A DNA stretch of 64,000 nt from Ectothiorhodospiraceae bacterium WFHF3C12 (lineage in GTDB: Bacteria > Pseudomonadota > Gammaproteobacteria > Nitrococcales > Nitrococcaceae), in NCBI GenBank assembly GCA_013519935.1, contig JACDUA010000003.1, forward strand, positions 1 to 64,000, given 5' to 3'. Positions within the stretch are counted from its first letter, which is position 1; each line of letters starts with the position of its first letter. The notes beneath the pieces were generated by a model, which did no database searches, had not been told where the DNA came from, and worked only from the letters and a program-made list of their open reading frames with translations. Of the stretch, positions 1-56,903 are shown in pieces. Both the position numbers and the translations under genes were made by a program.

Positions 1-14
1 TGTGGGAGATGAGA

Positions 15-23
15 TAAAGCGGC
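15..23 (+). repeat. Left subterminal inverted repeat of the IS110 element
   Basis: TAAAGCGGC is the exact reverse complement of 1388-1396. It lies 6 bp inside the predicted left end. Confidence 0.8.
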
Positions 24-48
24 GCGGTTGAAGGATACGGAAGTGAGA

Positions 49-119
49 GGTCAACCTCCCGGGTATTTTCAACACGAGGTCGCGCAAGCGCCTCAAAAGC
101 AGACCCTGGGAGGTTGACC
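49..119 (+). promoter_or_regulatory. Stem-loop sequestering the transposase ribosome binding site
   Basis: GGTCAACCTCCC at 49-60 is perfectly complementary to GGGAGGTTGACC at 108-119. GGG (61-63) with CCC (104-106) extends the stem past a one-base bulge. The 3' arm contains the GGGAGG Shine-Dalgarno (108-113) and ends at the base before the ATG at 120. In an RNA reading in from outside, the ribosome site would be fully paired, which would keep transposase synthesis low. Translational control is inferred; the pairing is visible. Confidence 0.7.
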
Positions 120-1151
120 ATGAACAACGTTGGCATCGATGTAGCGGACCGGGCAAGTGCGATGTGCGTGGTCGATGAGCACGGCGAGCAGCTCGGGCAG
201 TGCGAGTGCGCGACCCAGGCCTCGGCGCTGGCCGAGGAGCTGGCTCGGTGGCCGCTCTCGCGGGTGATCATTGAGTCGTCGCCGCTGGCGGAGTGGGTGG
301 CCTCGGTGGCCGAGCGCTGCGGTCACGAAACGGTGATCATCGATGCCCGGGCGGCGCGGCATTTGGTGAACTCGAAGAAGAAGACCGATGCGCGGGATGC
401 CTACACGTTGGCGCGGCTTGGTCAGAGTGGCTGGTATGTGGAGGTTCACCGCAAGTCGGCCTCGGCGCGGGTGATGCGCAGTCGGTTGCAGGCGCGCCAG
501 GGTCTGGTGCGCACGCAGAAGGCGATGGCCGCCCAGATCCGGGGGCTGCTCAAGGCGCACGGGGTGCGCGTAGGCCGGGTGGCCGAGGGTGAGTTTGCCC
601 AGCGGGTGCGTGAGCTCGCCGGTGCCGAGGTGCCGCAGCTGCTGGAGAGCCTGGAGGCGCTGCTCGAGCTCTGGGCGCGGGCCGGCGAGCAGGCCAAGGC
701 GCTGAAGCGCTCGATGCAGCGCGCCCGTGTCGAGCCCGAGCACGAGGCGGTGGCCGAGCAGCTGCAGAGCGTGCCGGGGGTAGGCCCGCTGGTCAGCCGG
801 GCGTACGTGGCGACGGTCGATGATCCGCGGCGCTTTCACCGGGCCGAGGCGGTGCCGGATTACCTGGGGCTGTCGCCGAGCGTGCACCAGACGGGTGAGA
901 CTGAATACCGTGGGCGGATCACCAAGGAAGGCGATGAGCTGCTGCGCTGGCACTTGGTGGAGGCCGCCCATTCGCTGCTCAACCGGGGGCCGGACTGCGC
1001 ACTCAAGCGCTGGGGCGAAGCCCTTCGCCAGCGCAAGGGTGGGGCCAAGGCCAAGGTGGCCGTGGCGCGCAAGCTGGCGATGCTGCTCTATCGGCTGTGG
1101 TTGAGCGGGGAGCGATTCGACACGCAGCGCGGCCTGGCGACGGCGAGCTGA
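120..1151 (+). CDS. IS110-family DEDD recombinase/transposase
   Basis: A 343-aa recombinase that, guided by a bridge RNA, moves the element through a circular intermediate. The N-terminal RuvC-like DEDD domain shows GIDVAD (Asp7), the Glu of IIESS (about 49), and TDARDA with the last two Asp (near 90). A coiled segment follows. The C-terminal Transposase_20 domain includes SVPGVGPL and LGLSPSVHQTG...GRITKEGDELLRW. The ATG at 120 is chosen because GGGAGG lies 6 nt upstream; a TTG at 114 in the same frame overlaps that site. One oddity is that the Tnp-domain position usually written SG, holding the catalytic Ser in IS621, reads TG here. No frameshift or internal stop is present, so the copy looks recent or intact. 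Confidence 0.95.
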   Translation: MNNVGIDVADRASAMCVVDEHGEQLGQCECATQASALAEELARWPLSRVIIESSPLAEWVASVAERCGHETVIIDARAARHLVNSKKKTDARDAYTLARLGQSGWYVEVHRKSASARVMRSRLQARQGLVRTQKAMAAQIRGLLKAHGVRVGRVAEGEFAQRVRELAGAEVPQLLESLEALLELWARAGEQAKALKRSMQRARVEPEHEAVAEQLQSVPGVGPLVSRAYVATVDDPRRFHRAEAVPDYLGLSPSVHQTGETEYRGRITKEGDELLRWHLVEAAHSLLNRGPDCALKRWGEALRQRKGGAKAKVAVARKLAMLLYRLWLSGERFDTQRGLATAS

Positions 1152-1179
1152 GCTGCCATCGCGACAGAGCCCATGGCTG

Positions 1180-1345
1180 GCTAAGCCGATAGCCGAGTTC
1201 CAAGCGGGAGCGGTTTAAGGGTTCGGTCACGCGGACCAAGAACGCGCCTTGGGGCAGACGACCCCGTGTGGGAGATCCTGGCCGCGTGCTCCGAACCCAT
1301 CTTGCGGCGCACAGCGACCGCGTAGAGAAGCCTGAAGACCCTTAA
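1180..1345 (+). ncRNA. Predicted IS110 bridge RNA with target- and donor-binding loops
   Basis: The non-coding right end, where IS1111-type elements encode their RNA, folds into two internal-loop hairpins. Target loop: CGCGG (1230-1234) pairs with CCGCG (1282-1286), and an inner GGGG/CCCC hairpin lies at 1251-1265. Its two strands carry ACGCGCCT (1242-1249) and TGTGGGAG (1267-1274), which together spell both halves and the AG/CT core of the occupied 14-nt site. Donor loop: an inner GCGGCGC...GCG-A-CCGC hairpin (1304-1321) is flanked by CATCT (1298-1302) and TAGAGAAG (1323-1330). These match the element's left end with core (1-strand complement) and its right end with core (1395-1402). The RNA ends are approximate; the guide matches are direct sequence observations. 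Confidence 0.75.
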
Positions 1346-1375
1346 GCCGCAGTCCCTTCTACACAATCCGGGCGG

Positions 1376-1381
1376 TTGACA
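1376..1381 (+). promoter_or_regulatory. Outward-facing -35 box in the IS right end
   Basis: A perfect TTGACA points out of the element, 19 bp from its right end. In the circular form (right end-AG-left end) the hexamer 17 bp downstream would be GAAGAT; in the present insertion it is GAAGGC. IS110-family circles are known to build a junction promoter this way. The -10 partner is weak, so the call is tentative. Confidence 0.4.
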
Positions 1382-1387
1382 TCCGGG

Positions 1388-1396
1388 GCCGCTTTA
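1388..1396 (+). repeat. Right subterminal inverted repeat of the IS110 element
   Basis: GCCGCTTTA is the exact reverse complement of 15-23, 4 bp inside the predicted right end. Confidence 0.8.
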
Positions 1397-1400
1397 GAGA

Positions 1401-1700
1401 AGGCGCGTCCCCGCGGCGACGGCTTTCGGATGCCCGAATCGCTGCGGCGGGGACGATCGATCGGCCAAACCGGTTCGCGGCCAGAGGCCGCTCCTACAAC
1501 ACCCCGGGTGCCCCGGGGTATGGCGAATCTTGCGGGAGGCGCGTCCCCGCGGCGATGGTTTGCGGATGCCATGATCGCGGCGAGGACGCCGCTCCCACAG
1601 CAGGATTCCACCCCGGCGGGTCTGCGAAGGCTGTGGGAGGCGCGTCCCCGCGGCGATGGCTTTCGAATGCCCGGATCGCCGCAGGGATGCCACTTCGAAA
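1401..1700. repeat. Cluster of REP-like palindromes (half of one displaced by the IS)
   Basis: Three units of the GGCGCGTCCCCGCGGCGA type occur at 1402, 1537 and 1639. They alternate with inverted partners such as GGCGAGGACGCCGCTCCCAC (about 1579-1598), so adjacent units can fold into long hairpins, as in BIME/REP pairs. A second palindrome type, TTCGCGGCC-AGA-GGCCGCTCC (about 1471), resembles Pseudomonas putida REP ending in GCTCCTAC. The first unit lacks its TGTGGG half, which lies at position 1 on the other side of the IS. No gene is seen in this stretch. Confidence 0.8.
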
Positions 1701-1708
1701 TAACCGCG

Positions 1709-3001
1709 CTATTCGGCCGCGCCCGCCGCCTGCAGCGCCTGGTCGATATCCCAGAGGATGTCGTCGATGGTTTCCAGGCCGATGGACAGCCGGATCATGT
1801 CCGGGGGCACGCCCGCGGCCACCTGGTCTTCCTCGGATAGCTGCCGGTGGGTGGTGGACGCGGGGTGAATGACCAGGGTCTTGGCGTCGCCGACGTTGGC
1901 GAGATGGCTCAGGAACTGCACGTTCTCGATGAACTTCACCCCGGCTTCCTGGCCGCCGCGGATGCCGAAGCTGATGATCGCCCCGGCGCCCTTGGGCAGA
2001 TACTGCTGCGCCAGCTCGTTGTAGGGGCTGTCCGGCAGCCCGGCGTAGCGCACCCAGGACACGCCCGGATGCTCCGCCAGGAACCGCGCCACCGCCATGG
2101 CGTTCTCGCAGTGGCGCTCCATGCGCAGCGGCAGTGTCTCCAGCCCCTGCAGGAACAGGAAGGCGTGCTGCGGCGCCAGGGTCGGCCCCATGGTGCGCAG
2201 GGTCTCGGTCCGGCATTTCATGGTGTAGCCGAAGTCGCCGAAGGTCTCGTAGAAGCGCACGCCGTGATAGCCCGCCGACGGCTCCACCATGCCGGGGAAA
2301 TTGCCGTTGTCCCAGGGGAACTTGCCGGACTCCACGATCACGCCGCCGATGGCGGTGCCGTGGCCGCAGATGAACTTGGTGGCGGAATGGACGATGATAT
2401 CGGCGCCGTGCTCGATGGGCCGGCAGAGATTCGGCGTCGCCAGGGTGTTGTCCACCATCAGGGGCAGACCGGCCTCGTGGGCGATATCGGCCACGGCGGC
2501 GATATCCAGCACGTTGCCCAGCGGGTTGCCGATGGTCTCCGCGTAGACCACCTTCGTCTTCGGCGTGATGGCCCTGCGGAAGTTCTCCGGGTCGTGGGGA
2601 TCGACGAAGTGCGTGTTGATGCCCAGCTTGCGGAACGTGACGTCCAGCTGGCTGAACGTGCCGCCGTAGAGGGTCCGCGCGGCGACGATCTCGTCGCCGG
2701 CCTCCAGCAGCGTCAGCAACGCCACCGTCTGTGCCGCCATGCCCGAGGCGACCGCCAGCCCCGCCCGGCCCTTCTCCAGCGCCGCCATGCGCTCCTCGAA
2801 GACCGCGTTGGTCGGGTTCATCATCCGACCGTAGATGTTGCCGAAGGTCTGCAGGTTGAACAGGCTCGCGGCGTGATCGGTGCTGTCGAAAACGTAGGAC
2901 GTGGTCTGGTAGATGGGCGTCGCCCTGGCGCCCGTGGCCGCGTCCGGAATCTGGCCGGCGTGCAGGCAGAGCGTTTCGAATCCGTATTCCCGGTCTGTCA
3001 T
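1709..3001 (-). CDS. metY: O-acetylhomoserine sulfhydrylase (aminocarboxypropyltransferase)
   Basis: A 430-aa cytosolic PLP enzyme of the Cys/Met metabolism family. It condenses O-acetylhomoserine with sulfide to make homocysteine, the direct sulfhydrylation route to methionine. Visible features are the family start LCLHAGQ, YGRMMNPT (cofactor/substrate tyrosine), the PLP lysine in VHSATKF (about Lys209), and STTHRQLSEE followed by GVPPDMIRLSIGLE near the C-terminus. Length and motifs fit the MetY branch rather than the shorter MetB/MetC enzymes. It lies 36 bp downstream of the CoA-binding gene on the same strand and probably shares its transcript. Its downstream flank is the REP-like cluster. 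Confidence 0.93.
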   Translation of the reverse strand: MTDREYGFETLCLHAGQIPDAATGARATPIYQTTSYVFDSTDHAASLFNLQTFGNIYGRMMNPTNAVFEERMAALEKGRAGLAVASGMAAQTVALLTLLEAGDEIVAARTLYGGTFSQLDVTFRKLGINTHFVDPHDPENFRRAITPKTKVVYAETIGNPLGNVLDIAAVADIAHEAGLPLMVDNTLATPNLCRPIEHGADIIVHSATKFICGHGTAIGGVIVESGKFPWDNGNFPGMVEPSAGYHGVRFYETFGDFGYTMKCRTETLRTMGPTLAPQHAFLFLQGLETLPLRMERHCENAMAVARFLAEHPGVSWVRYAGLPDSPYNELAQQYLPKGAGAIISFGIRGGQEAGVKFIENVQFLSHLANVGDAKTLVIHPASTTHRQLSEEDQVAAGVPPDMIRLSIGLETIDDILWDIDQALQAAGAAE

Positions 3002-56383: not shown

Positions 56384-56903
56384 GGCGGGAGTCTACCAGC
56401 CGGGCGGGCGCCCGGTACCGCCAAGGGTTATCGGCGGCCTGTGGGAGGCGCGTCCCCGCGGCGACCGGTTGCGGCATGGCCATCGCGGCGGGGTCGCCGC
56501 TCCCACAACTGCGACTATGCCCTGCGGCCGGCCGAAGGGCTGTGGGAGGCGCGTCCCCGCGGCGATGGGTGCGCCATCGGTTCGCGGCCAGGGGCCGCTC
56601 CTACACCCGCCGCCGGTCCGCCAAGGCGGATCGGAGGAATGTGGGAGGCGCGTCCCCGCAGCGATAGCTTCCGGATGCCCCTTTCGCGGCGGGGTCGCCG
56701 CTCCCACAACTGCGACTATGCCCCGCGGCCGGCCGAAGGGCTGTGGGAGGCGCGTCCCCGCGGCGATGGGTGCGCCATCGATTCGCGGCCAGGGGTCGCT
56801 CCTACACCGCTGCCGGTACCGTCACGGCGGGCCGGAGGCCTGTGGGAGGCGCGTCCTCGCGGCGATCGCCCGGGCGTACGCGCCGCACATTCGGGGGTGA
56901 AGC
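56384..56903. repeat. REP-like array with a duplicated 201-bp higher-order unit
   Basis: TGTGGGAGGCGCGT occurs exactly at 56440, 56541, 56640, 56742 and 56841, spacings 101, 99, 102 and 99. Alternate gaps carry different partners: an inverted unit GGGGTCGCCGCTCCCACA, then TTCGCGGCCAGGGGCCGCTC of the second REP type. The two-unit block 56440-56640 is therefore repeated at 56640-56841 with few differences. No gene is seen in this stretch. Confidence 0.85.

What the first reader, a model, noticed from the sequence alone, without database searches (positions are those of the whole stretch)
1..1402. The IS lies inside a REP-like palindrome, flanked by a duplicated AG core
Flanks are TGTGGG-AG (1-8) and AG-GCGCGTCC (1401-). 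Excision with one AG gives the standard repeat unit. A guided IS specialised on a genome's own repeats gets many safe intergenic landing sites.
Basis: seen in the sequence. Interest (0 to 1): 0.7.

Follow-up and report, generated by a model that had tools for sequence, protein, structure and literature searches.

The report
RNA-guided insertion sequence parasitising host repeats
A small jumping gene sits exactly inside one of this bacterium's own abundant intergenic repeats because it carries a guide RNA matching both halves of that repeat; relatives in other bacteria carry changed guides that match their own hosts' repeats, so this is a well-supported new example of a known behaviour.

Summary
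Window 1-1410 is a complete IS1111-type member of the IS110 family, flanked by TGTGGG-AG and AG-GCGCGTCC. Joined with one AG, the flanks give TGTGGGAGGCGCGTCC, which occurs 129 times in this genome and 0 times as the reversed control. Six contig ends carry the element: three with a left flank and three with a right flank, so probably three copies, all in this site. The non-coding region after the transposase gene holds ACGCGCCT (1242-1249, complement of AGGCGCGT) and TGTGGGAG (1267-1274). They face each other in a covariation-supported stem-loop, in the order published for IS1111 seekRNAs. Relatives in three other lineages keep the scaffold but carry different right guides; each guide fits its own target best, and in three of the four lineages that target is a host-specific REP. 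The same genome also holds an IS110-type element, and probably a third element, whose guides fit other REP arms. Insertion of IS110/IS1111 elements into REPs (ISPa11, IS621, ISPpu9/10) and natural guide reprogramming are already published, so this is a new member of a known kind. The repeated REP-to-REP retargeting is the most interesting part. 'Safe landing' is plausible but its benefit is untested.

The parts
1..8 (+). Left target half TGTGGG plus core AG; start of a host REP unit
9..1400 (+). IS1111-type insertion sequence body (1392 bp without the core, 1394 bp with one AG)
15..23 (+). Left subterminal inverted repeat TAAAGCGGC (6 bp in from the AG core)
120..1151 (+). Transposase, 343 aa, DEDD_Tnp_IS110 + Transposase_20; NF033542 'IS110 family RNA-guided transposase'; motif GLSPSVHQTG
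1219..1298 (+). Predicted seekRNA target-binding stem-loop: outer stem 1219-1234 / 1282-1298
1242..1249 (+). Right-target guide ACGCGCCT, complementary to the top strand AGGCGCGT (includes the core)
1248..1266 (+). Hairpin CTTGGGGC...GACCCCG separating the two guides
1267..1274 (+). Left-target guide TGTGGGAG, complementary to the bottom strand (includes the core)
1323..1330 (+). TAGAGAAG, identical to the right IS end 1395-1402; candidate donor-end guide (not tested by covariation)
1388..1396 (+). Right subterminal inverted repeat GCCGCTTTA
1401..1410 (+). Core AG plus right target half GCGCGTCC; REP continues CCGCGGCGA
1632..1647 (+). Uninterrupted target (REP) nearest to the IS
56440..56856 (+). 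Cluster of five uninterrupted target REPs spaced about 100 bp, with oppositely oriented REPs between them (BIME-like)

Best explanation
The element is an IS1111-type IS110-family insertion sequence. A short RNA from the non-coding region 3' of its transposase gene (seekRNA / bridge RNA) pairs with both strands of a 14-bp target, TGTGGG-AG-GCGCGT, through two guides that overlap at the AG core. The DEDD transposase recombines a circular form of the IS (joined at one AG) with that target, leaving AG on both sides. The target is the head of the host's abundant intergenic REP, so the IS is aimed at many non-coding sites. Related elements have kept the RNA scaffold and changed mainly the right guide, each fitting its own target: host REPs in G000, G004 and G310/G406, and a non-REP site in G539. 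Shown by sequence: IS, flanks, empty sites, guide matches, stem covariation, guide-target agreement in relatives. Inferred: RNA expression, the circular form, the cleavage chemistry, and the advantage of REP targeting.
For: Transposase family: Pfam, NCBIfam and PDB relatives IS621/ISCro4. Empty sites: 129 exact copies of the joined target, 0 in the reversed control. Left flanks x3 and right flanks x3 are identical only across the target half. Both 8-nt guides are in the NCR, chance of both about 0.0005 in Markov-1 shuffles. The order (top-strand complement before bottom-strand match, NCR downstream, sTIR present) is that reported for IS1111 seekRNAs (PMC11187229). Relatives at 61%, 58% and 46% aa identity: right guide against own right target 8/8 (G004), 7/8 (G406, G310), 8/8 (G539), and at most 6/8 against other lineages' targets. 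Stem: 10 of 27 predicted pairs have a double change that keeps pairing. Host specificity of the REP halves: 156 in G000 only; 22 in G004 only; 58 and 51 in G310/G406 against 3 in congeneric G199, which lacks the IS.
Against: No RNA-seq or transposition data. Left guides of relatives match only 6-7 of 8 (5 of 8 in G539), and the left half hardly varies among the REP-targeting lineages, so the left guide is poorly tested by covariation. A left donor-end guide did not show lineage-specific agreement. G310/G406 right guides each have one mismatch to the occupied site. Only four lineages were found. The spacing from sTIR to end (6 bp left, 4 bp right outside the core) differs slightly from the published 6-7/3 bp.
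Confidence: 0.92

Rival explanations
1. The transposase itself recognises the REP (its hairpin or GTGG head) by protein-DNA contacts, and the guide-like sequences are incidental.
For: REPs are hairpin-forming and are targeted by non-guided families too, e.g. ISPsy8 of the IS3 family (PMC1525189).
Against: Both halves of the target are matched by 8-nt guides in the expected strand and order. Relatives change the guide together with the target, including one whose target is not an obvious REP (G539). All three right flanks are the GCGCGTCC type, although of 42 TGTGGGAG sites in the window only 10 continue so.
Confidence: 0.04
2. The REP-like flanks are part of the IS ends, not target DNA; the IS is longer than thought.
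For: All six ends in this genome share the same 8 bp and 10 bp.
Against: The joined flanks occur 129 times without the IS, and relatives with the same IS ends have other right flanks.
Confidence: 0.01
3. The copies arose by recombination or amplification of a REP array that already carried one IS, not by targeted transposition.
For: Copies are identical in sequence, and REP clusters recombine.
Against: Sequence outside the target half diverges at once on the left and within 1-20 bp on the right, and three copies in G004 show the same pattern in unrelated surroundings.
Confidence: 0.03

Closest known systems
ISPa11 (IS1111-type, Pseudomonas aeruginosa REP; Siddiquee et al. 2024 PMC11187229; Tobes & Pareja 2006 PMC1525189)
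   Same: IS1111 architecture, downstream NCR, seekRNA with guides for both strands, insertion near the REP head in all copies
   Different: Different transposase and REP sequence; here relatives in other lineages carry guides for other REPs
IS621 (IS110-type, E. coli REP; Durrant et al. 2024 PMC11208160)
   Same: Guide RNA pairs with both target strands including the core; REP target
   Different: IS621 has its RNA in the left end, the opposite guide order and a CT core (core from my own recall); only the C-terminal part of the transposase matched in a PDB sequence search
ISPpu9 / ISPpu10 (P. putida REP; PMC1525189, PMC8450116)
   Same: Two dissimilar IS110-family elements in one genome use the same REP; AG direct repeat for ISPpu9
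   Different: Here the two or three elements use different REP arms or types, and the guides are identified
ISEc11 / ISXne4 natural reprogramming (PMC11187229)
   Same: Close relatives share the RNA scaffold but have exchanged guides that match different targets
   Different: Here the exchange is mainly on the right half and goes from one host's REP to another's

Membership tests
IS110 family | DEDD (RuvC-like) plus Transposase_20 transposase | tested here: met
   PF01548 and PF02371 above cut-off; NF033542 above cut-off; GLSPSVHQTG motif
IS1111 group | Subterminal inverted repeats (7-17 bp by PMC11208160) | tested here: met
   TAAAGCGGC 15-23 / GCCGCTTTA 1388-1396, 9 bp perfect
IS1111 group | Terminal extensions of 6-7 bp left and 3 bp right | tested here: inconclusive
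   6 bp left; 4 bp right outside the AG core
IS1111 group | Long NCR downstream of tnp | tested here: met
   About 250 bp after tnp against about 110 bp before it
IS1111 group | Guides in the order top-strand complement, then bottom-strand match | tested here: met
   1242-1249 then 1267-1274, same order in relatives
IS1111 group | 70-100 nt seekRNA co-purifying with the transposase and required for movement | not testable with these tools
   needs RNA and transposition experiments
REP (repetitive extragenic palindrome) | High-copy, intergenic, short palindrome with GTAG-like head | tested here: met
   129-156 copies; 10 of 10 intergenic in the window (crude gene calls); head GTGG; a REP with its inverted neighbour folds at -47 kcal/mol
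REP (repetitive extragenic palindrome) | Associated Y1 (TnpA-REP/RAYT) transposase | tested here: met
   Six PF01797 hits in G000; one at C167 lies in an array of this REP, 14 TGTGGGAG in 3.3 kb
Bridge RNA with donor-binding loop (IS621 sense) | Guides matching both IS ends | tested here: inconclusive
   TAGAGAAG matches the right end; no lineage-specific match for the left end

The most novel reading that the evidence does not exclude
Guided IS110/IS1111 elements track the turnover of their hosts' REP families. Each time a lineage acquires a new REP, resident ISs are re-guided to it, mainly by changing one half-guide while the other stays on the conserved REP head. Several independently organised guided ISs then share out the different arms or types of one genome's REPs.
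Probability: 0.45. Interest if true: 0.6.

Novelty: new member of a known kind. Interest (0 to 1): 0.42.

Why it matters
It gives a clean natural series in which one RNA scaffold has been re-aimed at least three times, mostly from one host's REP to another's. That lets guide rules (core inclusion, mismatch tolerance, which half changes) be read from sequence. It also suggests REPs are a general refuge for guided insertion sequences, so REP abundance and guided-IS content may evolve together, which can be tested across genomes.

Tried and rejected
Rfam had no match in 1-3000. The one genome-contig scan returned only a distant Sphingomonas locus (36%). Viral contigs: none. Plasmids: no record at 60% identity or more; best listed rows about 40%. 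Left and right contigs could not be paired, so the window's own left neighbour is unknown. A donor-loop guide for the left IS end was looked for and is not convincing. One structure count failed because of a wrong string length; RNAalifold was used instead. Idea dropped: that the left guide discriminates GTGGGAG from GTAGGAG in G004, because empty sites are already 19 to 3 in favour of GTGGGAG.

Full report
What was checked. The window opens with TGTGGGAG at 1-8, and AGGCGCGTCC lies at 1401-1410. Joined with one AG these give TGTGGGAGGCGCGTCC, which occurs 64 times forward and 65 times reverse in the window's genome, and never as the reversed control. The element between them is present at six contig ends, identical over 1-1410. 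Three contigs (C166, C157, C152) carry the left flank and stop 10 bp past the IS; three (C92, which is the window, C50 and C39) start 8 bp before it and carry the right flank. This is how an assembler collapses a repeat, so I count about three copies. The collapsed stretch is exactly IS plus target halves; outside it the sequences diverge at once on the left and within 1-20 bp on the right. The insertions are therefore independent events in the same site.

What the element is. The 343-aa protein at 120-1148 matches PF01548 and PF02371 above their cut-offs and NCBIfam NF033542, 'IS110 family RNA-guided transposase'. Its only relatives among solved structures are ISCro4 and IS621 transposases. 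It has the GLSPSVHQTG motif, which fits the GL-P----S(t)G motif given for IS1111 transposases (PMC11187229). The element has 9-bp subterminal inverted repeats, TAAAGCGGC/GCCGCTTTA, and its long non-coding region is downstream of the gene. Both are IS1111-group features (PMC11187229; PMC11208160).

How it finds the REP. In the downstream non-coding region the longest matches to the target are ACGCGCCT at 1242-1249, the complement of the top strand AGGCGCGT, and TGTGGGAG at 1267-1274, identical to the top strand and so complementary to the bottom strand. Both include the AG core. A first-order Markov shuffle of this region gave both matches of 8 or more, on either strand, in 0.0005 of trials. 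The order, top-strand complement first, is that found for all IS1111 seekRNAs studied experimentally, and the reverse of the IS110 type (PMC11187229). The two guides face each other across a hairpin inside a long stem. Across four lineages the consensus fold has 27 pairs, of which 10 keep pairing through a change on both sides.

Relatives as a natural experiment. The subfamily is rare: 2 of 54 genomes of the order and 3 of 369 sampled from the class had a close relative, the window's own genome counted in each. G004 (61% identity) has three copies with right flank AGCGGTCTCC, and its guide reads AGACCGCT: 8 of 8. G406 and G310 (58%) have right flanks AGCGGCATCC and AGGGGCTTCC with guide AAGCCGCT: 7 of 8 each. 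G539 (46%) sits at a site that is not an obvious REP, right flank AGCCTGAATT, with guide TTCAGGCT: 8 of 8. Against another lineage's right target no guide exceeds 6 of 8. Left guides match less well: 6-7 of 8 in G004 and G310/G406, and 5 of 8 in G539. GTGGGAG scarcely changes on the left among the REP-targeting lineages, so the retargeting is mainly on the right half.

The target belongs to each host. The 15-mer GTRGGAGGCGCGTCC occurs 156 times in the own genome and in none of five others. GTRGGAGCGGTCTCC occurs 22 times, only in G004. RGRAGNGGCWTCC occurs 58 and 51 times in G310 and G406, but 3 times in G199 of the same genus, which lacks the IS. The own repeat behaves as a genuine REP. It has a GTGG head, and units pair with inverted neighbours into BIME-like structures. 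The genome has six Y1-transposase hits, one of them in an array with 14 TGTGGGAG in 3.3 kb. All ten exact 14-bp targets in the window lie outside genes by my own crude gene caller. The ten fall in only a few clusters, so they are not ten independent trials.

Other guided elements in the same genome. A second element (325 aa; nine contig ends) has its long non-coding region upstream, as in the IS110 type. It breaks the opposite arm type of the REP, GACGCCGCT before it and CTCCCAC after it, at a CT core, in eight of the nine ends exactly (one left end reads GACATCGCT). Its upstream region carries GACGCCGC and, 3' of it, GTGGGAG, the IS110 order. A third, single-copy element (L050) splits yet another REP, GCGCCGCTCCT before it and CTACAGG after it, with CGCTCCT and CCTGTAG upstream of the gene (sequence). 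Chance of both matches in shuffles is 0.002 and 0.006 respectively, so the second is convincing with its nine ends and the third is only probable.

What is known already. REPs as specific targets of IS110-family elements were described in 2006 (ISPa11, ISPpu9, ISPpu10, ISRm19; PMC1525189). The RNA guidance of IS1111 elements, ISPa11 on REPs included, and natural reprogramming between relatives were shown in 2024 (PMC11187229). IS621 inserts into E. coli REPs by its bridge RNA (PMC11208160). The window element is therefore a new member of a known kind. What I did not find described, in a limited literature search, is a set of relatives re-aimed from one host's REP to another's, and several differently organised guided ISs sharing the REP arms of one genome.

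Limits. No RNA or transposition data exist here. The window's own left neighbour is beyond a contig edge. The donor-end guides are not established. The benefit of REP targeting is an inference; about three of some 130 sites are occupied.

Noticed in passing
L051-L059 (G000 C20, C96, C142, C9, C106, C13, C163, C3, C129): A second, IS110-type element (325 aa, upstream NCR) breaks the other REP arm type (GACGCCGCT / CTCCCAC); its NCR holds GACGCCGC and GTGGGAG in IS110 order.
   Followed up: partly
L050 (G000 C7): A third IS110-type element (338 aa, single copy) splits a GTAGGAG-type REP (GCGCCGCTCCT / CTACAGG), with CGCTCCT and CCTGTAG upstream of its gene.
   Followed up: partly
L068 (G000 C167:3688-3996 and flanks): A Y1 (RAYT-like) transposase gene lies inside an array of the same TGTGGGAG REP, 14 heads in 3.3 kb at about 100-bp spacing.
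   Followed up: partly
L039 (G004 C1:566914-567900 region): One G004 copy has a tandem duplication of the hairpin arm plus left guide (GTGACCCCGTGTTTGGGA twice) in its guide RNA region; whether it still works is unknown.
   Followed up: no
G199 versus G310 and G406: In one genus, the genome without the IS has almost none of the REP (3 against 58 and 51), so IS and REP presence go together in this small sample.
   Followed up: no
L049 (G000 C98:21860-22858): A distant IS110-family element (26% identity, one in-frame TAG in the matched stretch) with terminal repeats AGAAGGCCCCC / GGGGGCCTTCT; target unknown.
   Followed up: no
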